Shown piece by piece: positions 1 to 63,297 of a stretch of DNA of 64,000 nucleotides (its first letter is position 1; each line of letters opens with the position of its first letter). The notes beneath the pieces were generated by a model. It did not search any database. It was not told the DNA's origin and worked only from the letters and a program-made list of their open reading frames with translations. Source of the stretch: Deuterostichococcus epilithicus (Eukaryota > Chlorophyta > Trebouxiophyceae > Prasiolales > Stichococcaceae); the NCBI GenBank assembly GCA_033439295.1, contig JAVTLE010000017.1, positions 310,001-374,000 of the forward strand, given 5' to 3'. Made by a program: the position numbers and the translations under genes.

Positions 1-3000
1 GTGCAGTGGGCCGACGGCAGCGCGCCCACCGAGCACAGCGTCTACCAGCTGCAGGTGTCATGGCGTCCTGGAGCTTGCAGGAAATGAATTCGTCGACAGT
101 GTGCAAAATCAGCTGGGACTGCACCTGAGGCTGATGGCGGCTCGCCCAAGGAGCATAGCCTGTGCCAGCTGCAGCTGAGGTCGCAGGGGATGGGACATGT
201 TCAGGGCCTGCGGCTTTTTTCCTATAGTCCACGCTGCGATAGCTTGACGGGCGTCCGTACAAGGAGCCTGCAGCCTGCTCAGTCAATTGAGCTTCCTGCA
301 GTCGCTAGAGGCTGCTGGTGCAGTGTTGGTCTGCATGCGTCTTGGCTCATCAGTTGTAGACGCCCTGCCAGTGCACCCCGATCTGAGCGCTGCAGACCCC
401 GCAGGCCGGACAGGCCGGCGGTGTCTGGTTGGTTGCTGCGGGTTGCGCTGCTGCAGTAGTCATTTTGCATGGACTACCCTAATGCCACATGCTGGATGCA
501 TGCGAGCTTAACGCCGTAGCTGAACGAGTCAACTCGTAGCTCGTGGTTGAATGCCACACCAATCTGAGGCGTCACTGTCGTTGTTGCCCACTTGCTGCTC
601 ACCTGCTGCTGGCGCTGTTGCATCCTGGCCCTGGTCACAAGGCCTTCAGCGCCCTGCTGCAGGTGCACCCAGACTTCCAGTTTGCCGCTGGCGATGTGGT
701 GCTGCGCCTGCCGTCAGCTGCTGCACAGGCGCCAGCAGCTGCAGACCAGCCCGGCGGCCCTGGCCCCGGTGCCGATGCCGGCGCCGCCACCGAGCCCACA
801 GCCGGCGCCCTGGCGGCTGCGTCGCCCGCCAGCGACCTGCCGGCGGCCGCTGAGGCGATGCGCATCGGTGACAGCGCCGACACCGGCGGCGCAGCATCTG
901 CTGGGCCGGAGGCGCCACGAGCAGGGACCCCGCAGNCNGCCGCGGCCGCGGCGGCGCCGCCGCAGCAGCGGACACGGTGGCAGCAGCGCGCGGAGTGGCA
1001 GGTGGTGCCCAATCGGGGCGGCCATGCGCCCTACTATCACAACTCTCGCACGGGGCATTCCACCTGGCAGAAGCCCGACGTGCTGCTGACCACACAGGTA
1101 CAGTCCGTTCACCGGTGATGCCGCTCCTCCTGCCCCTGCTACACCCGAATTTTCTCAGCCAGGCTGCCTTGACCTTGCAGAGTGCACGATGTATGGAATG
1201 ACCGATTGCACCGCTACAATCAGTGACCGCGCTACAAAGCCGCACCGATGTCAGCCTGGGCTGGCATGTATCCTCTGTCTGGCAGCGGCCTGAGCGGGGA
1301 CACTACGCCCTCATCTCTGAATAACCTGCATGCACAACAGCGGCTTGCCAATGTCAGCGTGGCTGGCATGGGTCCATTGTGCGGCCCATTGAGCTGACAC
1401 TAAACCCGCAACTCCAACAGTTGATAAATGTATGTGTTGCATGCACCGCAGGAGCGTGCCGACGCGAGCGTGGGCTGGCAGGAGTACACGATGTGGCCCG
1501 TCGGCGCGCCGCCGGAGGTGCCGCCCGTGAGCTACTGGCACCACCCCGCCACCGGGACCAGCACCTGGGAGAAGCCGCCGGAGGTGAGCAAAGGACCACT
1601 GTACTTCCCGAGCGTCTCCAAACAGTTCCGCCCAGCAGGAACAGCAGCGGCTGGCTCGTTCTCAGAAGCTGTTCCGTGTCCCTGAGCCCCACTTGCAGTT
1701 TGAACCCTCAGCCTCCTGGGTCCCGAGGTGCGCACTGCTCTCGTGTCGCAATGCATCTCGTCCACAATTTGGAGAAAGAATGTCACACACCCTCGTGCGC
1801 CACTGGTGCCACCCCGCCACCAGCGCCAGCATTTAGGACATGTCACCCCAGGTGCGCCTCTTTTTCATCTCTGACGCTATCTGATGCTCTAGCTGTACGC
1901 ACGACCGAAACGTAAAGGGAAGCTTCAAAATGTCGATGTCCCGCCGTCAGACCGGCTTCCTGGCCTAGTTGGCCTTACTACCCTGCGCCCGGGTTGGAGC
2001 TGTGCCCCTGCACGCAGAGAAGGACTGTCCACGCGTTGTGCTGCGCCGCCTGGCAAAGGGGCCATGTAGCAGATGCAGAAGCTAGTCACAAACGTCCTCC
2101 GGGCTGTTCCATGCAGCTCGGATGCCCTCGCGCGGCTTCTCGCACCCCTCAGGCCACCTTAGCCGGGCGCGGCTCGGACTCCAAACCCTGCGATGCGGCC
2201 CCTGACAATTCCTCTGCCCTGCAACACCTCTACACGCAACCACTCGGGGTCCTGTCGCAAGGAGCGGGAGGCGCGGGCGGCAAATCCTGGACCAACAACT
2301 ATATCACCCTGTATTAAAAGTACTCCGGTTGATTGCCCGGTGCCCTTGCAGGTACGGGAGGCGCGAGCGGCGGCCAAGGAGCAGCAGGACGCAGATGCGC
2401 TTGCCTCCGGCGCCCTGGTGGGTTATTATATATGTGCAGACACACAATCGACATATGAATCGAAAATCAAACATGAACAGTGATGCAGTCACCTTGGCAT
2501 GGCCCAACTCGCATGGACCTGTTGTTGCTGACCCAGTGCGATTGCCTGCGAATGCTGGGGGATCTGGTGCGGCAGTACATCGATTTGAATCTCCCGTGAC
2601 GCAAGGCGCTGAGTTGCATCAAGTCTGAGCCGGGCTTCCTTGCGCACACGGCGACCTGTCTGCCATGCTGCCGGGATCGCAGGCTGGCTGCTTCTGCACT
2701 GTTGGCCGGCGCGCCGTTGCGCCTATCCTAGTGCATGCACGCCACCCTGTGTCCCCGGCTTCAGGCTCCTCATGCACGTGCAACCTTTCCCTTGCTGCCC
2801 CTTGCATTCCGCACGGTTGCATACTTCCGGGGTCTGGCGGTGCATCCCATGCTGCCGCCGCCGCCGCGCATCCTGCCCACTCCTACGCCCGGCACCTGGC
2901 GCTGCAGCTGACCCGCCGCTTCGAGAGTCGCCGCAGCATGCATGCAGTCGCACCCTGTCATGCTTCTGACGCTGACTATCTTACACACCTTCTCTGACTG

Positions 3001-6000: not shown

Positions 6001-9000
6001 CATCGCATCGCTGCCTGGGGCCACGGCTGAGCTTTCACCGGTCCCTTTTCCTGTGGCGCAGCTCTGTTTGGGCGCGATGCTGGCGCCGCAGTCGAACCCG
6101 CCGGCGGCCAGCAGACGGCTTCCGACGCGGTGGCGGCGCCAACGGCAGGAGGCAGGGGAGCAAACGAGGCGGAGCAGCTGGCCGCTGACGAACAGCGCCG
6201 CATCCTGCATGCCAACGCGGCCCTGGGTGCCGCTGGCGGCAGCGACACAGCAGGCAGCGATGCCGCGGCAGGGGCCGCGGAGGTCCCTATCGACGGCTCG
6301 GCGCCGTGGCAGCCGCCGCTGCCGGCAGGTGCGTTCGTGTTGGGCGTCGCAAGCTATGGTGCCCGGGTCCGCTAAACAGGACTGTGCACTCGTGCATGCT
6401 TTGGCGTCCCTCTCAATGATTATCAGGAGGAGAGCATGGTCCATGCCTCGCACTGTGCAAATGTCCACGTGAAACCCGCCTGCAGCAGGCGCCTCCAAAC
6501 TTGGCGACAATCTGCGACATTTACAGCAGCAACCGAATGCTGCCGCTGGAAAGCTTTTGCATCAGCACGTCCTGGCCCCTGCTAGATTGGTGGCTGCGCA
6601 GCGAGTGCAGCGCGCATGAGCGTATAGTCATTGCATCGCAGTTCTGCCCGCCCACAGGCGAGGCACGGCGGCGGGCGAAGATGCCGATGCCCGCAGGTCG
6701 GTCGCTGCACAGCGTCTTGCATGTGAGGCGGCTACTCATACTACCAATCTGATGGACAGGCGAGGCGCGGCGGCGGGCAGAGTTGCCGCAGGCTCAGGTC
6801 CGCACCGAGATCATGGCAGACTACCAGCGTCTGGAAGACGCCGCCGCTGGCGCGCGCGCGGCCGGCGGCGCCGTCGGCGGCATCGCAGTCGCCGAGCCGC
6901 CAGCCGAGAAGCTTTGGGCCGGCGAGCCCGAGGCGGAGTTCGACACGCCCGCCATCCGGCATCGGTTCGCGCAGCTTGTGCGCCGTGGCGGCTGGCGCCC
7001 TTTGGACGTGAAGCAGGCGTTTGCGCTGAGCGGGCTGAGCGTCGCCAACGACTGGTACGCTTTGGGGTGCATTTCAGGATGCTGCTCAGGGTTTGGATTT
7101 TCCAAGAGCAACTGGGACCCTGTGGACGCGAAGCAGAGAATTAGCGCAGAACGGGCTGAGCATCGCCTACGACTGGCATGCTTCACAGGGGAACCAGGGC
7201 TTAACCGCACTCCCGTATCTCTCGAGCTTGCGTCGGATCGGCCGCAGGCGGGCCCGGGCGGTCAGCAGCGCGATGCGACTTGAGAAAACATCAACAAGTT
7301 TGTTGCTCCGCTGTTTCTGAAAAGAGTCGACACTGCCATGCCGCAGGGTTTACTCCGAATTCCAGAGGGAGCTCCTCGGGAGCTCGTCGCTCCTCGATGC
7401 GGCAGTGGCAGCGCTGCGGCCAGCGCCTGCTGCCTCCCCCGCGCCAGCATCCACAGCCACGACCGCGGTGGCTGCGGCGGCGGCAGCGGCCGCCGCCTCA
7501 NCNGGTGGTCCTGCGAGCGCACCTGCCGCTGCCACGCACGCGACCAGCCCGGCAGCAGCCGTCACTCCCGGCGTCGACGCATTGGCAGGCGCGGCGGCAG
7601 ACTCCGTGGAAGAGCCGGCAGCGGCGGCAGGCAGGGGCGATGCGGAATCAGGAGGCGGCGGCGCGGCCGCGGCGGACTCCCCGGCGGCTGGAAGCAGCGA
7701 GGCGACGGCAGCAGGAAGCGGCGAGGCGCCCTCGGAGGCACCGCTCAGCTTCCCGCAGTTCGACGTGCTGGAGGAGCCGGTAGCGCACCACTTTGGGGAG
7801 GCGCCGCAGGCGGCGGCCAACCCCAGGTGCAGGCACCCACTCTGTGCAGTGTGTCTTGCAAAATTCCACGCCTTGCATCATGGTGCAGGATCTGTGCGAC
7901 CGGCAGGTGCTCCACTGGAGGTCCAGGCTGCTTCGGCTGTGTGGGGACCCTTCCCAGAGCAGGCCAGCTGGGTTGACACGCAGGGCGGTGTTCCGCAGCG
8001 GGTGCGCCGTGGGCGGGAGGGGCTGTGCGGGCCGTCTGCTCGCTTCCCAGGGTGGCACTCATTTCCAGCAGCATGGTCGTGACGCCTGCTCTTCGAAACT
8101 GCCTCCCAGCACCAAAGGTCGCAGGAGGCCTCAAGACAACTCGCTGCGCAGGGCTTTTGCAAAGCGGGTGCGGCGGGAGTGGGAGGGCCTCCGGGAGCTG
8201 CCGCCCACCATCTGGGTCCGTGCCTACGAGTCTAGGTGCGCGGCGGCAAAACCAGCCTCCAAACTCGTGAACACTTTCCCACTCCCAACTTCCACTCCCA
8301 TCCTCCACTCTCAACATCCCCTTCCAACCGCAGCACGCGTTGCAGCCTTTGCTCTGTCTGGTTCAGGCGCTGCAGCGCTGCGGCAGTTGCCCTTGATCAG
8401 CGCTTCTTTCGATGTTGCCTGCTCCTACCATTGGAAAACGTGTTCCTGGCGGATGAAATAGGTGTCTCCCGCACCCCGACGGTCGACTATCTCACAAGCC
8501 GCCCAGACGCTCGTTTGCTGTGCATGCTGCGCCTGGCGACAGTCCGCCAGCGGGGCAGACTCCAGTGCATTCAGTGCTCAGCCACCTCACGCAAGGTCTG
8601 CAGAACAGACCTGCTGTGCGCAGCGGCGGTGGGGCCCTACTGGCGCACCTGCAAACACCTTCAGCTCCTTTGCCTATTTCAGAATGTTGAGAAGTTCAAG
8701 TCATTGACTGCCAAGATATTGACGCCCAACTGCACCCGCAGGATGGATCTCCTACGCGCAGCGATGGTGGGCCCCGCAGGCACGCCCTACCACGATGGCC
8801 TGTTCTTCTTCGACATCAAACTGCCGCACGACTACCCCGCCTCGCCGCCGCAGGTGCCGCTGCCGCCTCCACGCTCCCTCTGAGCTCGAGGTCATCAGTC
8901 CAGCCCGGTCCGGCTCTGTGCGGGAGACCTGCAGCGCCTGCCATGCGACTTGTGCGCAGCGCATGCATGCAGCCTCCTGCACAGAGGCCAGCGCCCCAGC

Positions 9001-11369
9001 CCAGCTTTCATCAGGGCTTGGTCCCGACCCAAATGCCCTTTTCTTCCGGAATGTCATGCCTTCAGCTTATAAATAGGACACCATGACTTTGGAGCAGTAC
9101 ATATGACACATGAAGTCGGACCTAGAACACACGCCCGGGCACGCAGGTGTGGTACCGGTCGTGGGGCCTGCGGGTGAACCCCAACCTGTACGAGAACGGT
9201 TACGTGTGCCTCAGCCTGCTGGGCACCTGGAACGGGCGGCCCCAGGAGTGCTGGAACCCCGCCGCCTCGACGCTGCTGCAGGTGCCTGACCGCCCTCCAC
9301 ACGGCGCTCTGCTGCTGTCCTTGCTATTGCTATTGCATTTGCTATTACTATTGCATCACCTCAAGTGAAAGCCCTCAGGCGTGCTGGAGACCCGCCGCCT
9401 CGACACTGCTGAAGAGGCTGGCGGGTGCCCTGCCCGTGGCGCGCCACATTTTGCTCTTCCTGAAACAGATTGCCGTTTGTTGCCATCCCTTGCCACCTTG
9501 TGCTCCTCACCTTGCCGCTGGCGGATGGTTGGCTGCCTGCATGGGTGGCCTCAGCAGCGGCCACCTATGCAGAGAGCTTCACTGCGCCAGCTGCACGGTG
9601 CTCGGCTGTCTCTTCCCCCCCTGCAGCTTGCTTGCCCACAAACATGCTTGGCACGTACTGGCAGCTGGAGTTGAACACTGAATCTTCCAACAAGGGTATT
9701 CTATTCTGTCAAACAAAACCTTGACGTTCAAAAAAACCTGAGAAGTATCGCCTTAGCCCCACAGGTGCTGGTGTCCATCCCAGGGGCTGGGGGCTGGAGC
9801 TGATCATAAGTCTGGCCATTTCAACAAGGGGAATCCGTTCCGTCAAACAAACCTGAGGAGTGTGTTCTTCGTTCCCCAGGTGCTGGTGTCCATCCAGGGG
9901 CTGGTGCTGGTGCCGGAGCCCTACTACAACGAGGCCGGCTACGGGCGCCAGGTGCGTTTTAAAGTCAAATATTCACTATGAAGATTCTATGAAACAAAAA
10001 TGGCCAAAATATTCCGAGTCCATCCGAGCAGTGCTCAGGGTCCAGGCGTGTGGCCGCTGCGTGGGCTGCCCCGCACCAAGTCTCTGCTCATTGCATGCGC
10101 ATAGCAGCAGGCTTTACCGCGCTAGTCACGGCGCGGTGGCTTCCTCGCACGCCGCCGTCGCCTGTACAGTGCACGTCTGACATGTGGCAATGAGCTGCAC
10201 CGGTAAAACGAGCGCCAGCAGGACGGCGACCGTGCACCCGAGCGCATCCCACTCTGTCTTTCTGCGCTCATGGTCGAATGCTGTTACTCGTGGTCAGTCT
10301 GCAACCATATCACTCCAGTGCCATCCAAGGGGGCAGACACCCGCGGCGCACGCAACGGCGTCGTCCACAACCACGACGCCTCTCTTCAGCCGACTTCCAG
10401 CTGCCATCCCCCTGCCCTGCCCAGCCCCCCTGAAGCGAATGCTAGTGTGAATCCAGGTGGGCAGCGCCGGCGGCGCGCGCAACAGCGTGGTGTACAACGA
10501 AAACGCCTTCCTGCTGTCCGCGCGCTCCATGGTCAACTGCGTGCGGCAGCCGCCGCCCGACTTCCGGCCCCTCATGCAGGTCAGTTTGCCCGCTGCCGGC
10601 GGTGCGGCGGCGGCGACTGTGTCAGGTTTTCAAAAGTCGAGCGAGAGTGGGTCTGGCCGTGCCGTCTGCGACAGACGCGTCGGTGTGCCGTTTGGTCGCT
10701 CATGAGCCGTATGGTCGCTGCGTACAATGACAGACGTGCTGCGGGAATACACAAACACGTGAAGGTCCTCTGCCGACCAGACCCCCGCTGCTAGCCTCCC
10801 TGCATCTCTGGCCTGAACCAGGCATGGAAGCCACGTTTGGCAGACTGCAACCCTGAACCCTGGAGCGACGCCTCCGCAGGAGCACTTTGCACGACGGCGG
10901 TCCACCATTCTGGCGGCCTGCGATGCATATGCGGCAGGCGAGTGCCGCGTCGGCCACTTTGGCACCAACGCGCAGGCCGCGGCAGCGGCGACGGAGCGGC
11001 AGCTGCGGCGGCTCGCGGAGCTGGCCTTTGATGCCGGCGAAGCGGGTGCCGCTGCCGGNGGGGNNGGNCCGGCCGCCGGCCCCGCAGCAATCGGCCAGGA
11101 GGCTGCTGCCACGCCGGCGGCTGTGTCGCCAGCGCCAGCGGGCCCGTCCGACACCGATATGGCAGGCACAGCCGATGTCGCGGGGCCTTCCAGCGGCGGA
11201 GGGGCATCAGCAGATGCAGTGGTGGCGGCGGGGGGNCGCCGTGCCGACGGCCGCGCCGCCGCAGGACGGTTCAGTCGCGGCGGGCACCTCGGAGGGCTTC
11301 CGCCTGGTGCTGGCCCAGCTGCAACCGCGGCTGCAGACCGCGCTGCAGTCCGTCGCCTGGCCCTCCTAG
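1..11369 (+). CDS. UBE2O: UBE2O/PHO2-type E2 ubiquitin-conjugating enzyme with two WW domains (5' end outside window)
   Basis: This is a large hybrid E2/E3 ubiquitin-conjugating enzyme of the UBE2O/UBC23/UBC24(PHO2) family. Exons I support: 1-54, 663-1097, 1452-1583, 2352-2417, 3007-3159, 3815-3979, 4223-4459, 4797-4944, 5234-5370, 5591-5693, 6062-6328, 6760-7054, 7347-7826, 8152-8235, 8742-8853, 9147-9281, 9880-9951, 10457-10579 and 10880-11369; their phases agree. N-terminal SH3-like repeats typical of UBE2O are visible ([15 protein letters not shown]; then [32 protein letters not shown]). Two WW domains lie between them, ending near 1080 and 1580 ([17 protein letters not shown]). An acidic and Pro-rich middle follows. 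The UBC fold spans 8152-10579: [20 protein letters not shown], then [20 protein letters not shown], then [18 protein letters not shown]. The catalytic Cys codon is 9207-9209. After the N at 11236 the plausible C-terminus ([20 protein letters not shown]) is in another frame, so a base-count error is likely. The WW pair is absent from the UBE2O proteins I know. The 5' exon models before 3007 are the least certain. Confidence 0.85.
131..174 (+). repeat. Decayed copy of E2 exon 1-54
   Basis: Matches 11-54 at 34 of 44 positions by my count, ending in the same CAGCTGCAG as the real donor edge. It contains an in-frame stop relative to the exon. Confidence 0.8.
3663..3714 (+). repeat. Decayed copy of E2 exon 3815-3979 start
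   Basis: GCAGAGCAAGCTGAGCGACG parallels 3811-3862, GCAGAGCGAGCTGAGCGGGC, including the acceptor GCAG. About 40 of 52 bases match. Period 148. Confidence 0.85.
7122..7180 (+). repeat. Decayed copy of E2 exon 6760-7054 end
   Basis: TGGACGCGAAGCAG..CGGGCTGAGCATCGCC..GACTGGCATGC parallels the real exon end TGGACGTGAAGCAG..CGGGCTGAGCGTCGCC..GACTGGTACGC. The donor GT has become GC in the copy. Confidence 0.88.
9310..9360 (+). repeat. Simple repeat (TTGCTATT-like)
   Basis: Irregular TTGCTATTGCTATTGCATT units in the intron after the catalytic E2 exon. No function is evident. Confidence 0.7.
9688..9910 (+). repeat. Tandem duplicate of an E2 exon start with its upstream intron
   Basis: Two units, 9688-9797 and 9822-9910, share CAACAAGG, GTCAAACAAA, the CCCCAGG or CCACAGG acceptor and GTGCTGGTGTCCATCC. 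The second contains the real exon at 9880-9951 ([11 protein letters not shown]). The first has an extra C after GTCCATCC and a stop, so it cannot replace it. Confidence 0.9.
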
Positions 11370-11395
11370 GCACGGTAAGGGCTGTGAGCCATTGA

Positions 11396-11794
11396 CGGGC
11401 GGCGGGAGGTGGCGGCGAGGCCGCTCTTGACTTCGTGCGCTGCTGTGCTTAGGAACTCTTGTGCGATGGTTCCAGCGGCGCCTTGCTCACTCCAGCTTCG
11501 GGAGATAGCATCATGCAGACCGTTCGTGAGCAGTCACGGTTTGGCAGGAGGTTTAGGATTTGCTGCACCCGTCGACAGTCGTCATTTGACTGGTACCTGT
11601 AACACATCGGCATCATCGTGACCTTGAAACAATTTCGATGCGTCCTGTTGTTTGGTGTCTGCATTGCATTTTCCAGGTATGTGGGATTGGTGGGATTTTG
11701 GCTCGCTGCCCTGAGGGCCATGCAGCCCTGCAGCAGGTGCGACACAACAGTTTCAGACAGAGGCAACGGATCCAGTCATTTCCGAATAACTGGT
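11396..11794. other. Convergent intergenic region between E2 and H3
   Basis: About 400 bases between the 3' ends of the E2 (+) and H3 (-) genes. I see the possible TGTAA signal and, at its right edge, the H3 stem-loop. I see no coding sequence of its own. Confidence 0.6.
11598..11602 (+). terminator. Possible TGTAA polyadenylation signal of the E2 gene
   Basis: TGTAA is the usual green-algal polyadenylation motif. This copy lies about 230 bases after the E2 stop codon, a plausible 3'-UTR length. A five-base motif occurs often by chance, so support is weak. Confidence 0.35.
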
Positions 11795-11810
11795 GGTGTT
11801 TAGAAACACC
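11795..11810 (-). terminator. Histone 3' stem-loop of the H3 gene
   Basis: On the minus strand this is a perfect 6-bp stem (GGTGTT/AACACC) with a four-base loop (TCTA), about 31 bases after the H3 stop codon. It matches the geometry of the histone mRNA hairpin bound by SLBP, which in replication-dependent histone mRNAs replaces or precedes polyadenylation. The flank ACCACCA is shared with the H4 hairpin. Confidence 0.9.
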
Positions 11811-11841
11811 AGTGGTTTTGGGTCAAGACACAGCGTCAAGC

Positions 11842-12423
<582 letters not shown>

Positions 12424-13042
12424 GTTTGCTGCCTGCAGCAGAGCACACGGTGCATTGGGTCAGCTGACGAGCAAAGCCAGGTGAGAAGTCAACTGCACTG
12501 GTGGCAGTGCTGACACACAGCAGCGTCTGTGCAAGCCGAGCAGGGCCGGCTAGCCGGTGGATGTGAGGCTGCGGCAAGCAGGACGGACTAATAACGCAAT
12601 TACGCTGACTGGGATGCCATGAAGCAGAAAGCGGGCCGCTGAAAGGCAGAGATGACAGCCAGCTCACCTGGGAGAAAAGAGCTTGTTGACTTGGTGCCGG
12701 AGTTTGGAGGGCAAAAGGAGCGCAATGGTCAGCGAGTGCAGGAGCCTGCTGCTTTGAAGCAAACGCAATGACGAGAGTCTGGAGGGACCCGTGCCGACGA
12801 TTCGGCGCTACCTCGCACCCCTGCGCTTTATTCAGGGTTTGGGCAATGTACGAGCTACATTCCCACAGAGAAACGGGAAACTCTGAGCAGTTGCGATATC
12901 AAGGTTGCCGTTTCCACAAAACGAACTGCGATTCCCAGCTCCCCAAAAGCTCGCCAGCGCTGCAACTGCACAACATTCTGCTCTCCGCCTGCCTCAATCC
13001 TTTTCTCAGCTCGCTCCCCAGCACTCAACAACTCAAGCAACC
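12424..13042. promoter_or_regulatory. Divergent H3/H4 promoter region
   Basis: 619 bases separate the two histone start codons, which are transcribed outwards, so the region should hold both promoters (inference from arrangement). I could not identify a convincing TATA box or histone-specific element. A CTGCAG sits 12 bases upstream of the H3 ATG on the minus strand and could be the acceptor of a 5'-UTR intron. Confidence 0.6.
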
Positions 13043-13566
<524 letters not shown>

Positions 13567-13608
13567 AGCGTCTGCAGTTTTACTGTGCTTTCAACACCTC
13601 ATCCAATT

Positions 13609-16546: not shown

Positions 16547-39806
<23,260 letters not shown>

Positions 39807-52900: not shown

Positions 52901-53696
52901 GCAGGTCCGACATAGCAGGCCCACATCAACCTCACCGCACAACAGCACAGGCGGTAGCCCCTGATCGGCCACGAGCCGCTTGAGCTCTGTATGCCCATTG
53001 CTGCCCACCCTTGGAGCAGCAGCTCCACCTGCCACAAGCGTCGCCGCCCAACACTTGCGCAAACCCTTCCCCTTGATTGCAACGCAGCGCCGGCTGCATC
53101 ATCTGCTCTTGATGAAAATATGAGACCTACCAGGTGCAGGTGCATGCCAGGGCGGTCGCCGCCATCCTTCGCCTCGAGCGTGCCATTGAAGCGCTCGTCT
53201 GCATCGGTGGCGGAGACAAGGAAGGCGAACTCAGTATCTCCTCGCAAAATATTGCATGTATCTGACACCGCCCGTAGTTACTGCAAGGTCCAGTTCCAGC
53301 AGTCGCAGCAGCCACCCACCGCTGCACATACTCTGCTGCACGTGGTATTCAAGACAGGAGATGCGCAGGAATGGGTGAAAAAGTGATGCAAGCAGATATG
53401 TTCTTCGCTTCAGCATGAGATTGATATATTAGGCACTGCTGCACGTCGCTAGAGGGACTTCGTTGGGGGTGTCAACGCGAGTGTCATCTCATCCAAACAA
53501 CCTCACCGGCGATCTTTGCCTTCGTGAAAAAGACATCCTTGGCGATCAGCCGAAGCTCCAGACTGGTCTGCTTTGGGTGATCTTGCGAAGCCTCCCGCGT
53601 CTCAGCGCCTGGGGCAGCGTCGCCTCTGCCGCGGCTGCGACCTCGCCCTCTGCCGCGACCCCTGCCGCCTCCCCGGCCGCTTCTCCTCCCAGGCAT
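46967..53696 (-). CDS. RGG-box, R3H and ankyrin-repeat protein with C-terminal membrane anchor, 13 exons
   Basis: Probable nucleic-acid-binding protein, specific function unknown. Exons (minus): 53696-53507, 53240-53131, 52985-52926, 52814-52693, 52431-52329, 52115-52020, 51870-51751, 51088-50915, 50602-50096, 49943-49217, 48605-48459, 48081-47693 and 47419-46967, in phase and totalling 1066 codons. The N-terminus is Arg/Gly-rich (GRGGGRGRGRGRGRSRGRG). An R3H-like domain spans exons 4-5 (FPAHLSKGKRAHIHTVTKQV, then LETFSRGIGDGRYISVMR), with the R-x3-H signature as RAHIH. Ankyrin repeats follow at about 51870-50600 (APLHLAAAEGAADLVQALLD). A long low-complexity Ala-rich part repeats TVPLAQAIEP about three times. 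The end has a hydrophobic helix (GAVACCGLGAATVAAVCVLL) before SRRRW, suggesting a tail anchor. Exon 3-4 and 5-6 junctions are the weakest, and Ns at 50330-50402 blur exon 9. Confidence 0.68.
49330..49730 (-). repeat. In-frame repeat of the motif TVPLA(Q/E)A(I/V)EP in the R3H gene
   Basis: Three copies, near 49725-49690, 49615-49580 and 49330-49300, each follow an Ala-rich stretch of 25-100 residues and keep the frame, so they are a coding repeat rather than an intronic echo. Function unknown; possibly a short linear binding motif. Confidence 0.75.
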
Positions 53697-54252
53697 GTTC
53701 AGGTAGTTTTTCCTGCCGGTCGCGCAAACGTGGCTTAGATCGGAGCTGGGTTGGCAGGCCGGGTTCTGCACTGAAGAAGCGACATGACTAACATGACCAA
53801 TGTGGAGACTTGCATGAAGACTACCAAGCTTTTGTAGTGAGCATCGCCAACTGCTGGGTGCATTGCCTGCACCCATTCCGTTCGAGTTAAACCACATTCA
53901 CAATTTGCCAAGCGAACGGTGAACTCTGGCATTGCTAGTTTCGTGTGTCGCGCCGGAAAGGTCTGTCAGTCATCCGTTCTCGAAACACCGACACTGACCT
54001 TCTGAACAACAAAGGTAGAGTTCGCAGGAAGCCAACATGGCCTGGCAGCCACGACCAACGTCGCACTCGTCGGCGCTGGGTCCAGGCTGCACAGGACCCT
54101 CGCTAACAGACCCCAGGCCGGGGAACGCCCAATTGCCCGCTGCAAATGTCACACAGCACCCGTCGTGCGGGTCCCAGGCGTTCTCGGTGCAGCCAGTCGC
54201 AGCGGCAGGCCAGCCCCGGAAGCACACGCAGTGAGTTTCCTGCAAGCAGTGC
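53697..54252. promoter_or_regulatory. Divergent promoter region of the R3H and proteasome genes
   Basis: 556 bases between outward-facing start codons. A Cys-rich minus-strand frame crosses it (listed under findings). I see no recognisable core promoter motif. Confidence 0.45.
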
Positions 54253-57200
54253 ATGCCCATGCTGGCGCCCTGTGCGCGGCCGTTCGAAGCAAAACTGGAC
54301 CTGGTCCTTGAGGGCATTTCAGCGGTGCAGGGGGTCAGATACGCTTCGTCCGATACATCTGTGAGCAAGCTCTTGATTCCTGCGACGTGTTCTGACGGCA
54401 GGGACCCATATGTGACGGGGACCTCAGTGCTGGGCATCGTGTACAAAGATGGCGTTATGCTGGCCGCTGATACCCTCGGTGAGGCACATGTCCGAGTGTT
54501 ACTATGCACCAGGGCGCCTGCCCACGATGCGACCTGCTCCTCGCCGACACTGCTGCTGTAGCACAACATGGTGTGTCGCTGCACCACGAGCTTGCCGCAC
54601 AGCATAGCGTGATGTCCGATGTGCATGCTGCAGGCTCATACGGTTCTACGAAGCGGTACAAGTCGGTGGACCGGCTCATCAGGATCAACGACCGAACGGT
54701 GCTGGGGGCCTCGGGGGAGCTGTCCGACCTCTCCTACATCCTGAAGTGCGCACCACTGCTTCTGACTGCAACCTCATCGCCTTGCACGACATGCCTTGCT
54801 TGTACTTGTTGCCTCGAGTGCGCTGTCCGACCTGGCCTGCTTTCTGCAGTGCGCAGTGCAGCTCTTATATTGCATAGCTCATCAGCTGCAAATGCGGCAT
54901 GCTCGTATCGCCGCATCGTATCGCCGCATCGTGCCGCGGGCCTTGGCAGAGCTGTCCAATCTGCCCTGCATCCTGCAGGCACGGCACCTTGCTGGTTGCA
55001 TTCTGTCACCTGTGGCAACCATGTCTCTTGCAGCACGGCTTTGCGCCGCACGCCTCTGGCTAGCCGCCTGGCGAGTGCCGTGCCAATGCTTGAACGTGCG
55101 TGATGAAAGTGCGCCAGCCGATGTCTTGCAGGGGAGGCAGCGGCGGCGTGGGCAGCTGCGAAGCTGACTCCACAATGCCGGTACTCCGGTGGACTGCAGT
55201 GACCCCAGCGAAGCTTGCCTCGACCCCTGCGCAGGCTGCTGGATGAGCTGGTGACGGTGCAAACCTAAACCCTAAAGCCCTAAACCCAAATGCAGGCTGC
55301 TGGATGAACTGGTGAAACCCCAAATCCCTGTGCAGGCTGCTGGACGAGCTGGTGACAGCGGACTTCGTCGCCGACGATGGCCTCCAGCTGGAGCCGGACG
55401 AGATCCATGCATACCTGCAGCGGGTTTTGTACAACCGGCGCAACAAGTGAGCAGCACCCAAGCCTTTTTCAAGCCTCGGAACCCTGATGAATGCTGGAGC
55501 CGGATGAGGTGTTTGTGTACCCGCAGCGGCTGCTGCAGAATCGGCGCAATGTGCACATGGCTCTGGCCGTCCTCCCGTAGAGCATGCAAGCGTCAAGGCC
55601 GCAGGGGCGTGCTGCAGGGGGGTGTTGTGGTGTCAGTCCTGCGCGCAGCCGCTGTCGTGGATCTTGAAGGAGGGTCTCAGGGCCAGCTGCGCAGGCGCAC
55701 GCTGCCGTGGCCCACAGCATACACCCATCAAACATGTTGGCACCTAGCGCAGGGCGGCGGCGCTGGCTGCAAAACCAACCTGGTGTGGATCTCACTTGTA
55801 GTGAGTGGCGTGCTGGGCGGCCTGCTGCGTCGGCTTGTGTCGTCCTGATGCTTTACCCATGAGTGTGATGTGCGGACCCGTATGCTGCCTGCAGGTTTTG
55901 CTCTGGAAAGTCGCTGGTGGTGGGCCGCAAGGGGCTCGAAGTAATGTCAAATGCCCTACCCAAAAGGGCATCTGGGCCTGTGTGAAACCTTTCATGCCCT
56001 TTCCGTGCCCCTGACTGCAGGTTCGACCCGCTGTGGAACTCGCTCGTAGTGGGCGGCGTGAAGGCGGACGGCACCCCCTTCCTCGGCACCGTGGGCATGA
56101 TCGGCACCGCCTTCACCGATGTTCACGTAGCCACAGGTGCCCAGTCCTGACTGTCTTGGCAGATACCCCAGTTTGCCAAACAAACTCGATCACCATATGT
56201 GTCTTCCTTCTCAGTGTGAACATCATATGGTTTGGCAGCGTCCCGGCGCAGCTTGTGTTCCGGGAGCGGAAGTCGCAGTGCCTGCCAGCGCACACACGGA
56301 ACAGAGCTGCCACAACACACAGCCCTGGATCGGAGAGCTTTCTCGTGGTGCAGGTCTTGGCAACCACCCGGCGCGGCCGCTGTTCTGGCAGCGGGACGTG
56401 CAGCGCCTGCCGGGGCACTGCAGCGAGTGTCTTTCGCAACCACGCTTGTGGGCAGACACCTGCACACGTGTGTGACTTGCAGGATTTGGGAACTACCTGG
56501 CGCGGCCGCTGTTCCGGGACCAGGAGGCGGAGCTGCCGGCGATGGGCGAGGCGGACGCCACCAAGCTCATGCACGACGCGCTGCGGGTGAGATAGGGCTT
56601 AAGGATTTAGGTTCGCGCAGCTGCGAAAGTGACCAGCAGCCTGTTTCTCGAAGGCAATCCGAGTGCGTGTGCCGAGCTGGAGCTCGCAGTGAGGCCCGCT
56701 GCAGTGAGGGTTGTTGCAGGCTATGGCTGGTATGCCGCTGACTCAGCGCTGGCTTGTTGCCCAGCTTGCATGTCGGCTTGCAGCCAGTGGTGCGGCTTCT
56801 TGTGGCGGTGGGGGCAATGTCCGCTGTGCATGCCTAGTGCAGCATCGTCAAGCGCGGCAGTCATGGCAGGCTCTGCGCTGCAGAGTCAGGCTTCACTGCG
56901 CCCTGACAAACGGCGAAACGGCGCTTGACGACGTGTGCATTGCAAAACTTGCAGATCTGCTACTACCGCCACAATCAGACCCTGACCGATGAATCCTAAA
57001 CATCGCAGATCTGCTACTACCGCGACAAGCAGAGCATCAACAAGTTCCGCATCATCAAGGCGACGGCGGCCGGCGTGACGCTGACGGAGCCGTTTGCGCT
57101 GGAAACCAACTGGCACTACAAGGTGGGCTGACATACTTTTGCACTGTCTGCTGCAGAGCATGTTTGTGCTGCCTGCTGGGTGTTCGCTGGGTATGATTGC

Positions 57201-57364
57201 CGTGCTGTCTGCTGGGCATATCATTGCATGCCGAGACCCGCTTGCAGCGCTTTGTCTGTGTGGTCCTGCCACTCCTCGCTGCTGAGAGCAGTGTGCGTTC
57301 TGATCCTGTCGTCACTGCGCAGGCATTCGTGAACCCCACTGCCAATGCGGTCGGTGCATGGTGA
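54253..57364 (+). CDS. PBG1: 20S proteasome subunit beta7 (PBG1/PSMB4), 7 exons
   Basis: Non-catalytic beta7 (PSMB4-type) subunit of the 20S core, which in this family forms part of the beta ring. Exons: 54253-54478, 54634-54745, 55336-55446, 56021-56136, 56483-56586, 57009-57122 and 57323-57364; they sum to 825 bases (274 aa). Conserved segments: DPYVTGTSVLGIVYKDGVML, SYGSTKRYKSVDRLIRI, TVLGASGELSDL, EIHAYLQRVLYNRRNKFDPL, WNSLVVGGVKADGTPFLGTV, ATGFGNYLARPLF, ICYYRDKQSINKFRI and the plant-like C-terminus AFVNPTANAVGAW. The length and the N-terminal prosegment before TGTSV fit the family. The start at 54253 is the first in-frame Met I could justify; the prosegment is poorly conserved, so it could differ. 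Most introns hold decayed copies of neighbouring exon edges. Confidence 0.95.
54806..55315 (+). repeat. Decayed exon-edge copies in proteasome intron 2
   Basis: Two copies of the end of exon 2 (GCTGTCCGACCT) lie at about 54810-54850 and 54938-54985. Two copies of the start of exon 3 (GCAGGCTGCTGGATGA) lie at about 55226-55256 and 55291-55315, ahead of the real one at 55332. The intron thus carries relics of both flanking exons, each next to its parent and in order. Confidence 0.88.
56232..56412 (+). repeat. Two decayed copies of proteasome exon 5 start
   Basis: 56232-56298 and 56346-56412 both resemble the start of exon 56483-56586 (compare TTTGGCAGCGTCCCGGCGCA and GGCAACCACCCGGCGCGGCC with TTTGGGAACTACCTGGCGCG). 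Spacing is about 114-137 bases. Frames are broken relative to the exon. Confidence 0.85.
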
Positions 57365-57833
57365 GGGGCGCACCATTTCTGAGGCGGAGCTGGACACCAC
57401 GGTGCTGCATGAAGCTTCGAAGGGCAGTGCGCCTGGGAACTGCTTCGCAACTATGGACGGCAAGGCAGCCACAACGGAGGATGTTGTTAGGAGAAGTAGC
57501 GCTGTGCACGCTCCCTAGTTTGCCGGCCTTGGATTGGTGTGCATCGTCGACAGCCTTGCGACTGGATGAACTTCTGCGACGCCTCCATCACAACATCCAA
57601 GCTGGGATGTGCCCCTCGCTCGGGTTGTGTCTCCTCCCCATGCCATACCCAGAGATCAGATTCTGTATGCGAGATCTCTCCACACGCGCAGCGCCAGCGC
57701 ATGTCCAAAGGCCTTCGTAGAAGCTTGCACGCAGGTCTCTTTCTTACTCTTTCAATTCGTTTAGACGTTTCCTGCAGGTTAGCGACGCATGGCAGGAAAT
57801 CTCGATGTCCTCATTTGAGAAGGTTTGACGCCG
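57365..57833. other. Intergenic region between proteasome and P450 genes
   Basis: 469 bases in tandem orientation. It should hold the proteasome 3' UTR and P450 promoter. I found no TGTAA and no clear promoter element. Confidence 0.5.
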
Positions 57834-60800
57834 ATGCACGGCGAAGGCAGCGGCCTGGCCGGCCAACGGAGCATCAAACAGCGTCCAGGCCACGTAGTCA
57901 ACCAAATCAACAGCCTCAGATGTCCGCAGCGGCCGCAGATCAGCCGGCAAAAGTGTCGACGGAAAACGCGCTCAGATGTTCATGCCCGGAGCTCAGTGTT
58001 CGAGAGCGCTGCTACCGCACCTCCGACGCCCGCAGTGCCGTTGGGGAAGTGCCCCGTGCAGCATCTGGTGCAGCACGGCGCGGATCTGAGCCTAGAGCAG
58101 CAGAAGGCGCTGCTGGGCATGCAGCGGGAAAAGGTCACGCCCGGGCCCCCAGCGTTCAGCCTGGCCTCGATGCTGGACGTGAGTCGAGCGAATTCCAGCA
58201 CAGAATTATAATCGGAAACGTGTCACCTGTGAAGCAAACACCGTCGCAGCACTTGGCGACTATCTGCTTGCGTGTCGTGGTTTTGCATGAATAATGTCTT
58301 TCCTGCACTGCAGGTGACCGGCATCCTCGTCAATGGCATTCACCAGGCCATGCTGGAATTTAGCATCAAATACGGTCCGGTGTGCAGGTGCGAGCCGCTC
58401 GTCCTCTTGCGCATGCGAAGCACGAGCTGCTGCATTCCCTTGCAACGCCTAGCATCGCCCCTAAAAACGAGAGTGGCACGCGGTCCTAAAGTCGCCATCA
58501 GAACACGAGAAGCGGTGTATGATCTCCTTCTGCGACTCGGTGATGCGTCCTGGGTGTCGCACAGATTTGCCAACCCCTCGGCGCTGAACGCCGCCGCGGG
58601 TTGGCTGTTCGTCAACGACCCGGAGAACGTGCAGTACCTGTGCGCCACCAACGTGCGCAACTATCAGCGGCGATACTTGCCGGACATCTACAAGTGGGTG
58701 GCTTTGCATTTGATCACTGTGAAACTGTCTGCAGGTTCACAACGAGGCATGTCAACCAATTCACACATGCATTTGATGTCAAGTGATGATTCTGTGAACC
58801 GGTCATTGGTAAACCTGTGCTGCCCTAGGTGGGTGACGCATGAGAAGGGCATCCTCGGCAGCCAGGTGCGGCGTGGCAAATGCGCTTATGCACCGAAAAT
58901 TGTTGACGCGAACATGCAAGAGGATGGTCGCCTTCGCTGCACAGCGCGATGGCTAAAATCATGGCTGGCCTGATGCCGTGCCGCGTGTTCCTTGCTGACA
59001 CATGGGTTGCTGGATGGCAGGACGACTACAATGCGAAGCACCGGCGGTTGTGCCAACCGCCGTTCCGAAACCGGACGGTGCTGCAGGGCTTTGCCAGTGT
59101 CATCAGCGACCGGTGAATACTGTCTGCCGCAAACTCATGGACTCCTCGTTGTGCCCTGCCGCAAACCTCAGCATCCCTGCTGGCTCAACAAGTGAACGTT
59201 GTATTGCGGGGTCAGGCAGGCCACAGGATATCGCAGGCTCCAACGGAGGATCACTGCCGATGTGCCAGGGCACTGGAGCTCGTCGACATCTGGAGGCGGC
59301 ACGGCGAGCACGTCACCGACGTGTCGCTCCAGACGCAGCGGCTCACGCTGGACGTGGTACGACTCTCTAATTCTCAAAATCGCAAATTGCCGCATGTGCT
59401 GCCCGTATCCGTACCTTGCTCAGATGTGTGCGGCATGCAGCGGCCACCTTGGCTGCATCGAGCTGGTGCAGAAACGGTATGCAATTCCGCAGGTGGGCCT
59501 GGTCGCCTTCTCGCACGACTTTGAGGAGACGGCACAGATCCGGCGGTGTGTTTTTTTTAAAGGATAAGTTGATTTTGTCCCCTCTCCCTTGCTGTGCCCC
59601 AGAACGGTCTTGCTCTGCGATGCTGGTCCTACCATCTGCATGCCTTGCATCCAGCCGCACAGGCATTGCAGAGAGCCAAAGCTGGGAAAGCGCCACGTTC
59701 GAGGCTGCCAGCATGCAAAGCGGTGTGAGACTGTGCAGATGCCCGCTGCACGCTTGGGCAGGCAACAGGCGGGTTTGCAAAGATGCGGAAACCGGGCGCT
59801 CCAAACGTGAGGGTTCGATATTAGCGATGGGAACCTTCTTTCCTTCTGGAATCGATTTCAGAAACTGCCAATGACGGGATTCGAGGATGCACAGGGAGCT
59901 GGAGGGGCAGACGAAGTCGCAGGAGGATGCGCTGCTGTGGGCGGTCAACACCTTTGGCGATATTCTCGCTAAGGTGCGGCGCAAGGCCTCCGCCCTGGGA
60001 CATGCACCTGGAGCAGTTCGTGCATCGACAGCCACGATGTGGGGCCCTATGTGCGCATATGTGAGTCGTCAACAGAGAGGGCAGGGGGCCCGCGGGGGGG
60101 GCCGGATTGCTCAAAGCTGGTAGTCCATCAAGAACGCCGGCAGCGCGGTCTGGATTGACACCCAGCAGCGACACAGCAGTACTGCCAGACTCGGCAGCAG
60201 GAGAGATCGACACTTCGCCTGCTTCGCTTAGGTGTTCATCACGCCATTCCCGGTGCTGCGATTCATGGAGCGGCTGGGCGACCCGACGCTGAAAACTCTG
60301 AAGCGCGCCGTCGCCACCATGCGAGCCTCCATGCTCGGCGTCATCCAGGTGAGTGCTTCAGCCACGGGCTCGACGCAGCGGTCCGACCTACAGCCTTGCG
60401 CTAATGCTTTGCCCTGGCTTCTGCGCAGTCGTGCACTGCAAGCCACGCCTGACAGCCCTGAGATACCCCCGCAACCTTTCGTCATGTGCCCAATGTGCCT
60501 GCATAGATAGAGACGGCATTGCTCAACTCAGAGGGATAATTTGATGCATGCACTCCTGCAGCGGCGGAGAGAGGCGCTGGCGACGGGTGCGCACGGCACC
60601 CAGAACGACCTGCTCAGCGTGCTGCTGGAGGTGCGCGTTGGGAGCCTTTCTGCACGGCGTCTCGAAGCAGCTGCTTCCATTTTCTGGCACGCTGGTGACA
60701 GCGCGCCGTAGAGGACGGGAAATCTACTGGTTGATGTTGTCACTGCCACCAGACAGCCCCGAAGCGAGCTTGCGAAAACGAGTGTCACCCTCTTCAGAAG

Positions 60801-63297
60801 GAATACATGTTGTGCACCACCACAGCAGCAGCTGTTCCACCACATGCGGAGATTAAGAGGGTGCGCAATCTGACGGATGAGGGTCTGTTGGATCATGCAC
60901 ACGATATCAACGGCCACTGCTGCTTCAAACGACCACTGCTGCAGCGCTCAGAAACATCACGGTTCTTCCTGTCTCGCAGGCGGAAGACGAGGAGGGGCGC
61001 AAGATGACGGACGAGGAGCTGTGGGAGGACGTGCACGACATCATGGGCGCGGGGCACGAGACGACGGCGACCACGACGGCGGCGGTGCTGTACTGCGTGT
61101 CGGTGCACCCGGAGGTGCAAGCGCGCGTCACGGCGGAGCTGCGCACCGTCGTCGGCGGTGCGGCCCGAAATCCTAAACCCTCTCTCTGTGGCACAAGCTC
61201 GGACCCCTGCTTGAGGCTTGCTTGAGACCGGCTTGAGCGGAGGCTGTGGTAGGATGCACTGGCCCAGTGCTGGCTGCACGGCAGATCTTCCTGATGTTGA
61301 CATGGCCTGGGCGACCGAGGAAAGCGGCACGATCCTGGGCTTGGCGGCGCAGCGGACAGTTTCAGTCTGGCGCGGTCACGTCCTGATTCTTTGACATTCG
61401 AGACGGCTGCTGCGGCCACCTCCCAGTTGCTCTGCCAGTCCTGACTTCAACCCCTGAACCCTGCGCAGACGCGGCAGCGCCCACCCATGAGCAGCTGGAG
61501 CAGCTGCCGTACCTGCGCGCCTGCGTCAAAGAGGTGCGGCCATGACACTGAAACCTTGCAATGCAATCTAAACGGTAAAGAGAAATGACATTTAAAGTAT
61601 TGGGACAGTGCCCCACATCAGTCTGCAGATGCCCTATCTGCTTGCCTGCGTTGAGGCGGTGCAGCAGGCAGACTTTGACCACCATCTGACTGCGGGGGGC
61701 GCTGAAATGATCTGACACCTTCCCGCTGTGGTCCATTGCGCTGTTTCGTCTGGTTGCGCCATCACCATCACAGCAGCGTGGGCAGCCAGGCGAGCTGAGT
61801 CCTCAGACCTACCATTCAACTCTCGCCTCAGAGGTCCACTCGCAAGTTGTGGTCGGGCGCAGGTGCTGCGGCTGCACCCTGCCATCCCCGTGACGCCAAG
61901 GGAGGCTGCCGCCGACGACGTCCTGCCGTCTGGAGACCGCATCCTGGCAGGTGTGCGCTGTGCGGACTTCAGCCGCACAATCTGGTTCGCGGCCCGGCGC
62001 CGCCACACCTTGATCCCTGCAAGCTGCACAAGCACCTTGCCGGCCGAGGCGTGCGGGTCGTGCACGAGCCACTGTGCATGCGGATCCCCCGTGAATGCCA
62101 GTCTGGCGTGGAGCTGCGCCGCTGGGCGGAGTGCAACAGCGGCAGCCACCAAGCATGCGGCACCCAGCAGCCACGCAACAATCATCGTCTGGATGATCTC
62201 CTCCGTGCAGGCGACGTGGTGTTCATGTCGCCATATGCTCTGGGGCGTTCGCCGGCACTGTGGGAGGACGCCGCAAAGTTCCGCCCGGTGCGCCTCTTGT
62301 CCCCGCATCCCTCCTGCTGGCTCGCTCAGCGTCGATACTGCACTGCCGGGGATCAAGGGATCCGGCGGCCTGCTTGCGTGCTGACAGGCATGCCTCGTCG
62401 TTGGAATGGGTGCTGCGGCAGATGCGCCACACGGTTCATGCTATTTGGTGTGTTTGGTGTCGAACCTACCATATAGTTGGTCGCACCTCATTGTGCACTC
62501 GATGCGCAGAAGCGCTTGGTTGTGCAGAAGCACTGTCTGCAAGGACCAGCTGATGAAGCGACAGCAAGAAACTGAATGCAGGCCACGGTGCTGTCCGCAA
62601 CCCAGATGTCCGCGTTTGTTTCATGGCGCAGGAGCGCTTCCATGACGAGGAGCAGCTGGCGAAGCAGCACCGCTTCCAGTTCCTGCCCTTTGGCGCGGGA
62701 CCGCGCATGTGCCTCGGCGCAGGCTTTGCGCAGGCGCGAATCAGGACCCTTTCCCAGACTGCTGCTGCTAACGAAGGGCGGGAGCATGGGTGGACACTTG
62801 CAGGGCGGGAGCCGGCGTTAGGCCAGTCTGTGCAGCCAGCGCCATTACTCTGGTTGCCGTGGTGCCAGCGCTCAGAATGACGGCTGAGCCCAAGAAATAA
62901 CCAGCATCTGCCTGTCCGACTCACAAGTCGCTCACACTGCGCGCCGCAGATGTCGGTGACGATGATGGCGGCGACGCTGCTGCACCACTTCCGCTTTGAC
63001 GCCATCACGCCCAACACCCCGGAGCTCCCATGCGGCTATGACATCACGGTGCGCTCTCTGCTGATTTGACAACAACTAAGGTTTTCATTTCCGAATCAGT
63101 CCGCTCACCGTCGTTATGCTGGAGCAACTGCTCGATTCCTGTGGATGGCAGCATCTGTGGATGGCAGCATCCTGTGGATGGCTGCGTTCAGCCTTTGTGT
63201 TGTTGACCTGGGTCGATGGTCATGTGTTGTGCATGGGCCGCAGATGAACTTCAAGCCGACCAACGGTTTGAAGATGCGGGTCGTGCCACGGGCGTAG
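57834..63297 (+). CDS. Cytochrome P450 monooxygenase, 17 exons
   Basis: Haem-thiolate monooxygenase, substrate unknown. Exons: 57834-58178, 58314-58387, 58565-58693, 58829-58865, 59021-59112, 59269-59356, 59493-59545, 59886-59973, 60232-60348, 60562-60630, 60980-61157, 61469-61533, 61863-61950, 62211-62287, 62632-62733, 62950-63048 and 63244-63297; together 585 codons, all phases consistent. Motifs: I-helix oxygen-binding AGHETTAT (exon 11), ExxR as KEVLR across exons 12-13, PERF-like KFRPERFHDEE across exons 14-15, and the haem loop FLPFGAGPRMCLGAGFA with its Cys codon at 62710-62712. The first 115 residues are basic and Ser/Pro-containing, possibly a plastid transit region (inference). The C-terminus NFKPTNGLKMRVVPR resembles CYP97-like ends, but I do not assign a subfamily. 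The donor after exon 15 is GC (CAG|GCGCGA). The start codon is the least certain part. Confidence 0.9.
60857..60913 (+). repeat. Decayed copy of P450 exon 11 start
   Basis: Resembles 60996-61052 in the real exon: TGACGGATGAGGGTCTGTTG against TGACGGACGAGGAGCTGTGG, then CATGCACACGATATCA against CGTGCACGACATCA. It lies about 140 bases upstream, within the intron. Confidence 0.85.
61627..61668 (+). repeat. Decayed copy of P450 exon 12 end
   Basis: CAGATGCCCTATCTGCTTGC..GTTGAGGCGGTGC parallels the real exon end CAGCTGCCGTACCTGCGCGC..GTCAAAGAGGTGC at about 61502-61537, including the GGTGC donor junction, 127 bases downstream. Confidence 0.85.

What the first reader, a model, noticed from the sequence alone, without database searches (positions are those of the whole stretch)
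1..63297. Genome-wide style of 'exon echoes': introns carry decayed direct copies of neighbouring exon edges
In the E2, SWR1, F-box, proteasome and P450 genes many introns, and at least one in the R3H gene, contain one to four imperfect copies of the adjacent exon end or start. All I saw are in direct orientation, mostly within about 60-300 bases of the parent exon, and often include the splice-junction bases and some flanking intron. Copies have stops and indels, so they are not used exons, and decay tends to increase with distance. The simplest inference is repeated local tandem duplication across exon-intron junctions, which would lengthen introns and could create them (as in AGGT tandem-duplication models of intron gain). 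I do not know of a description of this as a pervasive feature of a genome.
Basis: partly seen in the sequence, partly recalled or inferred. Interest (0 to 1): 0.95.

Follow-up and report, generated by a model that had tools for sequence, protein, structure and literature searches.

The report
Intron copies of neighbouring exon edges
In this alga-like genome many introns hold a worn, same-direction copy of the edge of the exon next door, usually about 115 bases away and ending almost exactly at the splice site, which suggests that introns grow by error-prone repair at exon-intron borders.

Summary
In the window, local direct repeats with starts 60-300 bp apart number 33, against 0 inverted and 1 and 0 in two shuffles. 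In 284 kb, 92 of 484 usable introns hold a copy of an adjacent exon edge (105 edge hits): 48 of 150 in and beside the window, 44 of 334 elsewhere. Controls give 17 edge hits with foreign introns and 26 with reverse complements. Copies are direct, start within 5 nt of the exon edge in 76 of 105, mostly lie 83-184 bp away and decay without codon bias.

Plain tandem duplication across the junction plus neutral decay predicts detectable homology of the intron flank in about 50% of cases; 8 of 57 show it. Most copies stop within about 5-10 nt of the splice site and are separated from the parent by about 70 bp of AT-richer, unrelated spacer. I favour repair-like duplication with filler at splice junctions.

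Separately, short telomeric repeats sit in 27 introns, 19 of them hugging a splice site (6.0 expected).

Gene models are my own predictor's; no RNA-seq, no relative. Decay with distance was not significant; intron creation was not tested directly.

The parts
9..177 (+).
   Evidence: 38/49 identical, exon part ends at the junction
1327..1473 (+). E2 gene: echo 1327-1362 of acceptor-side exon edge 1438-1473 (junction 1452), d 111
   Evidence: 27/36; about 14 nt of flank also similar
7020..7183 (+). E2 gene: donor-side exon edge 7020-7062 (junction 7055) and echo 7141-7183, d 121
   Evidence: 36/43
9685..9900 (+). E2 gene: echo 9728-9785 of exon start at 9880, d 115; one of few cases with intron-flank homology (about 48 nt)
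   Evidence: 46/58
21891..22073 (-). SWR1 gene: echo 21891-21946 of donor-side exon edge 22018-22073, d 127; about 20 nt flank shared, then unrelated spacer
   Evidence: 50/56
25871..26163 (-). SWR1 gene: array of an exon edge and two echoes, period 104; the nearest echo matches the exon 59/62 (48 in a row) while the two spacers match 28/44
27790..27951 (-). SWR1 gene: acceptor-side exon edge (exon start at 27840) and echo about 27901-27951, d 111; further copy near 28061
   Evidence: score 39 over 51 ungapped positions, i.e. 45/51
28790..28931 (-). SWR1 gene: echo 28790-28824 of donor-side exon edge 28897-28931, d 107
   Evidence: 31/35
30290..30472 (-). SWR1 gene: exon edge 30290-30355 and echo 30407-30472, d 117; my predictor called part of the echo (30415-30465) an exon, probably wrongly
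   Evidence: 50/66
54692..54978 (+). Proteasome gene: exon edge 54699-54752 with two echoes, d 103 and 232
   Evidence: 41/54 and 41/55
55218..55356 (+). Proteasome gene: three copies of an acceptor-side exon start; the filler between the first two contains a telomere-like stretch at 55264-55287
55387..55549 (+). Proteasome gene: donor-side exon edge 55387-55443 and echo 55493-55549, d 106
   Evidence: 43/57
56944..57033 (+). Proteasome gene: echo 56944-56979 of exon start at 57009, d 54
   Evidence: 31/36
61500..61665 (+). P450 gene: donor-side exon edge 61500-61540 (junction 61534) and echo 61625-61665, d 125
   Evidence: 31/41
20800..20814 (-). Telomeric repeat 6 nt inside a donor site (TTTAGGG sense)
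21076..21113 (-). Telomeric repeat (CCCTAAA sense) ending 6 nt before an acceptor
26554..26572 (-). Telomeric repeat 13 nt inside a donor site (CCCTAAA sense)
61164..61181 (+). Telomeric repeat 6 nt inside a donor site (CCCTAAA sense)
10849..10861 (+). Telomeric repeat (CCCTAAA sense) 18 nt before an acceptor

Best explanation
Echoes are most likely scars of repeated, error-prone DNA repair or re-replication events at exon-intron junctions. Each event copies about 20-70 bp of exon edge, together with the splice-site core, in direct orientation and leaves about 50-100 bp of unrelated, AT-richer filler between copy and parent, so that the intron grows by about 115 bp. The outer copy is the working exon; the inner copy then decays neutrally, and later exchanges between copies can expand arrays at the same period. 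Shown: direct orientation, junction anchoring, the distance mode, neutral decay, a non-homologous spacer in most cases, and units duplicated with their flank in a few. Inferred: that the spacer is filler made or captured during repair (staggered-break fill-in, end joining or template switching), and that it arrived in the same event.
For: Direct only. Anchoring in a scan that does not start from exon hits (345 introns): 14-mers recur 30-170 bp away in the intron for 2.1-3.8% of acceptor-side windows from the junction to 39 nt into the exon and 2.9-4.6% of donor-side windows from the junction to 18 nt; on the intron side for at most 1.7%, mostly under 1%; foreign controls 0-0.4%. Distances centre on 115 (sd 25, the 59 copies under 170 bp). 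Spaced repeats 75-170 bp apart are exon-intron in 36 of 47 against 17.2 expected by random relocation (p 4e-8). Two young pairs, 97% and 92% identical, end abruptly (L003 5803/5918, L014 8912/8997). Spacer GC 0.516-0.517 against 0.587-0.588 at matched positions. Besides themselves, 57 spacers had 10 further hits in 284 kb, 4 of them in their own intron and the rest 16-30 bp long; they do not match the surrounding 6 kb. Branch-point-like motifs precede echo acceptors as often as real ones (14 of 32 each; other introns 153 of 330; mid-intron 22%), as expected if the original acceptor context now lies at the echo. Telomeric repeats hug splice sites (19 of 27 against 6.0 expected), and one echo spacer is telomeric.
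Against: Why the copy should stop within 5-10 nt of the junction is not explained; filler plus duplication at random points would give longer intron parts. Only 1 of 57 spacers contains telomeric repeat, so the two junction-linked phenomena may be separate. A minority of cases do show longer flank homology. In the 25871-26163 array the spacers are homologous but more diverged (28/44) than the exon part (59/62), which fits homogenisation better than filler. With high indel rates, simulated plain duplication comes nearer to the observed flank identity. No presence/absence comparison was possible.
Confidence: 0.45

Rival explanations
1. Plain contiguous tandem duplication of about 115 bp across the junction, then neutral decay; the exon side looks preserved only because the parent exon is constrained.
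For: Two arrays with flank included. Residual flank homology above permuted pairs (acceptor 21% vs 1.6%, donor 8% vs 1.3% at SW>=11 after trimming 8 nt). The geometry d = exon part + spacer fits.
Against: Simulations matched for identity and gap rate over-predict flank homology 3-4 fold, and of 7 young cases 2 show it against about 95% predicted.
Confidence: 0.2
2. Old tandem duplications whose exon part is repeatedly homogenised with the parent exon (gene conversion or unequal exchange), while the flanks diverge freely.
For: Window 25871-26163: exon part 59/62 identical, 48 in a row, spacers 28/44. C15:309.1-309.4 kb looks like an unequal exchange between an older echo and the exon (my reading of the alignment). 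Distances near 115 and about twice that.
Against: No patchiness of mismatches within echoes (54 copies, combined p 0.74), though whole-block conversion would not be patchy.
Confidence: 0.22
3. Copying is coupled to splicing or transcription, for example repair templated by RNA, which would explain why copies end at the splice junction.
For: Junction-close boundary on both donor and acceptor sides; splice-site-hugging telomeric repeats.
Against: Echo flanks match neither the exon across the splice nor the other end of the same exon, so spliced or circular RNA was not the template.
Confidence: 0.08
4. Echoes are functional: alternative exons or decoy splice sites kept by selection.
For: AG at 20 of 41 echo acceptors, GT or GC at 24 of 37 echo donors; branch-point motifs upstream.
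Against: Mismatches nearly even over codon positions; copies partial; AG is kept no more than about 20% decay per base would give (about 26 of 41).
Confidence: 0.04

Closest known systems
Tandem genomic duplication model of intron gain (AGGT duplication; reviewed in PMC3443670, passages seen)
   Same: Direct local duplication involving exon and splice-site sequence
   Different: That model duplicates an exon segment and makes an intron as long as the unit; here copies lie beside their own parent junction inside longer introns, and most lack a contiguous duplicated flank
Staggered double-strand-break repair in Daphnia neointrons (PMC4202315, passages seen)
   Same: Direct repeats inside introns taken as scars of staggered breaks that lengthen introns; repeats shared with an adjacent exon
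   Different: There the repeats shared with an exon are 4-12 bp and at the opposite end of a new intron; here they are about 20-70 bp, on the same side, about 115 bp away, in 13-32% of introns by region (raw counts)
Direct repeats near intron borders (Rogers and Bendich 2025, PMC11782384, abstract and first part of Results seen)
   Same: Direct repeats near splice sites
   Different: Those compare the 5' with the 3' border within 40 bp, mean 11.4 bp in the abstract; not exon-edge copies deep in the intron
Short interstitial telomeric repeats at repaired breaks (recalled; the one search gave only listings)
   Same: Short telomeric stretches inside chromosome arms
   Different: Here 27 of 28 sites in the sample are in predicted introns and 19 of those next to a splice site

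Membership tests
Contiguous tandem duplication across the junction | Similarity runs over the whole unit, intron flank included | tested here: not met
   8 of 57 with flank SW>=11 against 50-53% predicted; met or nearly met in two arrays
Contiguous tandem duplication across the junction | Direct orientation | tested here: met
AGGT tandem-duplication intron gain | Repeat distance equals intron length; echo at the opposite intron end | tested here: not met
   4 of 105 hits within 15 nt of the opposite end; echo introns median 445 nt against d about 115
Staggered-break repair (Daphnia type) | Direct repeat flanking inserted unrelated DNA | tested here: inconclusive
   spacers without local or mutual relatives, but that the spacer was inserted with the copy is inferred
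Staggered-break repair (Daphnia type) | Presence/absence of the insert in relatives or alleles | not testable with these tools
   no relative held
Introner or transposon insertion | Inserted sequences share a family | tested here: not met
   57 spacers: 6 short hits (16-30 bp) outside their own intron in 284 kb; one of 57 spacers searched in the whole genome, no second copy
Mutually exclusive or alternative exons | Whole exon with coding constraint | tested here: not met
Mutually exclusive or alternative exons | Use in transcripts | not testable with these tools
   no RNA-seq

The most novel reading that the evidence does not exclude
Exon-intron junctions of this genome are preferred sites of DNA insertion: a process guided by splice sites, transcription or splicing itself inserts filler (sometimes telomerase-type repeats) just inside introns and copies the exon edge up to the splice junction, so that intron length is built junction by junction.
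Probability: 0.15. Interest if true: 0.9.

Novelty: new variant of a known kind. Interest (0 to 1): 0.62.

Why it matters
How introns lengthen and where intronic DNA comes from is an open question. If roughly one intron in ten (more in rich regions) still shows a datable, junction-anchored duplication scar, this genome lets the rate, size and mechanism of intron growth be measured directly, and the splice-site-hugging telomeric repeats give an independent marker of junction-local insertion.

Tried and rejected
Spliced mRNA as template: echo flanks do not match the adjacent exon. Circular-exon template: no match to the other exon end. Patchy gene conversion: no patchiness. Spacers as a repeat family: no. 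Spacers from the nearby 6 kb, either strand: no. Assembly artefact: judged unlikely, since 42 of 57 copies are 70-90% identical to the parent (histogram), but no second assembly was seen. Multiples of three: 12, 21 and 26 of 59 for d mod 3 = 0, 1, 2, a weak deficit that I do not rely on. d correlates with parent exon length (rho 0.38, p 0.003), unexplained. Histone H3 paralogues as a natural presence/absence test: of 15 pairs of six introns 13 align no better than SW 16 (one pair, L032/L034, aligns over its length), and none of the six carries an echo at the threshold; in L035 the first exon matched only in part, so its intron limits are doubtful. Algal contigs in IMG/VR: one poorly conserved query, no relative. 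Literature: nine searches; no listed title or abstract start describes this as a genome-wide pattern; full texts were not screened and most subscription papers are not held. PMC4938644 (outline and passages) proved irrelevant. Genome-wide telomere-plus-splice-word patterns: 150 (GCAGG) against 33 (GAGCG) and 74 (CAGGTG) against 9 (CGATGG), overlapping matches included; the splice words are themselves 2.8 and 2.7 times commoner in the sample, leaving about 1.6-fold and 3-fold. The pattern with CCTGC (149) was meant as a control but also reads reverse donors, so I dropped it as a control.

Errors of my gene finder: some echoes were called as small exons (window 26011-26053 and 30415-30465 by my reading), and it fuses neighbouring genes. 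Exons under 20 nt between introns were merged into introns before the 284 kb counts, under 25 nt. Introns dropped before counting: 532 found, 484 used (both exons >=25 nt, intron >=60 nt). Hits not starting within 8 nt of the exon edge (27 of 105) were left out of geometry counts; many are probably chance. Low-complexity pairs were filtered out in the repeat scans.
Full report
Setting. The window is C15:310001-374000 of a 46.8 Mb genome in 21 contigs, about 64% GC. I worked on 284 kb: the window, 10 kb on either side of it (84 kb in one piece, called W) and 20 other 10-kb stretches.

Gene models. No annotation was available, so I trained a hidden Markov model on the sequence itself. It learned a donor CAG|GTGCG and an acceptor (C/T)GCAG|G. 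Checks that it did not see in training: branch-point-like CTGAC is enriched before its acceptors, most 20-40 nt away (54 of 330 introns against 19 in a control stretch); it returns histone-H3-like and H4-like proteins, each from a two-exon gene, and long models without internal stops. Pfam finds the core histone domain in the H3 model, histone-fold families (not the core-histone model) in the H4 model, SNF2 in the SWR1 stretch, and P450 plus a weaker proteasome match in the model at 54253-63297, which fuses two genes. E2, LRR/F-box and the gene at 46967-53329 were not scanned.

The observation. Local direct repeats far exceed inverted ones and shuffles. Exon edges recur in their own adjacent introns far more than in foreign introns or in reverse complement. 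The region of the window is rich (48 of 150 introns), the rest less so (44 of 334), against 17 foreign and 26 reverse-complement edge hits in all 484 introns, so the window is not typical and the weakest class holds chance hits. One to four copies per intron occur. Identity does not fall significantly with distance.

Anatomy. Of 105 hits 76 begin within 5 nt of the exon edge, on donor and acceptor sides alike. Of 78 anchored copies, 3 lie at 49-54 bp, 58 at 83-184, 15 at 209-268 and 2 beyond 1.1 kb; the 59 under 170 bp average 115. Mismatches fall nearly evenly on the three codon positions (39 gapless copies) and are not clustered (54 copies): the intronic copy decays as unconstrained DNA.

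Where the copy ends. If a unit spanning the junction had been duplicated, the intron flank should be copied too. In a scan of 345 introns, recurrence of 14-mers jumps at the junction itself and fades 25-45 nt into the exon. Flank identity is 0.67, 0.41, 0.36, 0.29 and 0.29 at 1-4, 5-8, 9-14, 15-20 and 21-40 nt (57 copies). Simulations of contiguous duplication with matched echo identity, at the two indel rates that bracket the observed gap rate, give 0.63-0.69, 0.55-0.61, 0.47-0.52, 0.41-0.48 and 0.36-0.41; at higher indel rates 0.55-0.59, 0.47-0.49, 0.40, 0.35-0.36 and 0.31-0.32, with SW>=11 still in 43-45% against 14% observed. From this I infer that plain tandem duplication explains perhaps a quarter. 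The splice-site core of the echo is consensus-like, but beyond it the flank resembles its own parent only slightly more than any other intron.

Specificity for junctions. Spaced repeats 75-170 bp apart are exon-intron in 36, intron-intron in 6, exon-exon in 4 and intergenic in 1 of 47, against 17.2, 17.6, 5.5 and 5.1 (the rest of the expectation falls in mixed classes). At least two of the intron-intron pairs (L003 5803, L012 4387) are copies of echoes. By my reasoning, slower decay of exon-intron pairs gives about a twofold bias if births are steady and more if most are old, so this is strong but not decisive.

Young cases. At C15:309.1-309.4 kb (just left of the window) a 133-bp unit is duplicated with its flank, 96% identical over 74 bp, apparently by exchange between an older echo and the exon. 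At 25871-26163 three copies with period 104 occur; the exon part of the nearest echo matches in 59 of 62 positions, 48 in a row, the spacers in 28 of 44. At L003 5803/5918 and L014 8912/8997 the copies are 97% and 92% identical and end abruptly. So more than one process may act: first duplication, then exchange or homogenisation.

Telomeric repeats. Telomeric 9-mers occur 90 times in introns of the sample against 2.2 expected from shuffles, twice in exons (0.8 expected) and never between genes (0.2 expected, so uninformative). They form 28 sites, 27 in introns; 19 of the 27 lie within 21 nt of a donor or 32 nt of an acceptor, expected 6.0, reached in none of 200,000 draws; these limits were set after seeing the list. 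All 11 near acceptors read CCCTAAA in the sense strand, which offers a branch point and pyrimidines; the 9 near donors are mixed, 5 TTTAGGG and 4 CCCTAAA (one short intron counts on both sides). Genome-wide patterns agree after correction for word frequency, about 1.6-fold for acceptors and 3-fold for donors. One site, 55264-55287, lies between exon-edge copies; another, in a 54-nt intron of L010, lies between an 11-bp direct repeat that includes the acceptor. But only 1 of 57 echo spacers is telomeric. Selection for useful splice signals may explain part of the acceptor sites.

Paralogues. H3 gene copies whose matched exon stretches are 93-98% identical carry introns at the same place that mostly cannot be aligned beyond short stretches (13 of 15 pairs at SW 16 or less), so intron interiors turn over fast here. 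Histone exons are unusually conserved (recalled), so this gives no clock.

Conclusion. The pattern is real, directional and junction-anchored. The best account is repeated repair-like duplication with filler at exon-intron junctions, with exchange between copies; contiguous duplication alone is not enough. Intron creation by this route is neither shown nor excluded. The finding stands close to known ideas on break repair and tandem duplication in intron evolution, but repeat length, side, distance and frequency differ from the passages I could read. All statistics rest on 0.6% of one genome, with the window over-represented, and on predicted genes.

Noticed in passing
window 10849-10861, 20800-20814, 21076-21113, 26554-26572, 55264-55287, 61164-61181 and 21 further intronic sites in L002-L020: Short telomeric repeats in introns, 19 of 27 next to a splice site; all 11 near acceptors in CCCTAAA sense.
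   Followed up: yes
window 11842-13566: Neighbouring histone H3-like and H4-like genes, each with an intron; H3 paralogues on C15 and C4 have near-identical exon stretches but mostly unalignable introns.
   Followed up: partly
L025, L027-L029 (contig ends): C5 starts with telomeric repeats; the first 120 and last 120 of the 400 bases fetched from the starts of C7 and C12 are the same, and the end of C12 looks like a reverse complement of that region.
   Followed up: no
window 49298-49747: Exon-exon direct repeats that encode a repeated protein motif (TVPLAQAIEP) in the predicted gene at 46967-53329; ordinary coding repeats.
   Followed up: no
window 936, 7501, 11059-11068 and other places: 29 isolated N bases (27 runs); origin unknown.
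   Followed up: no
window and sample, distances of echoes: Echo distance correlates with parent exon length (rho 0.38) and is a multiple of three in only 12 of 59.
   Followed up: partly
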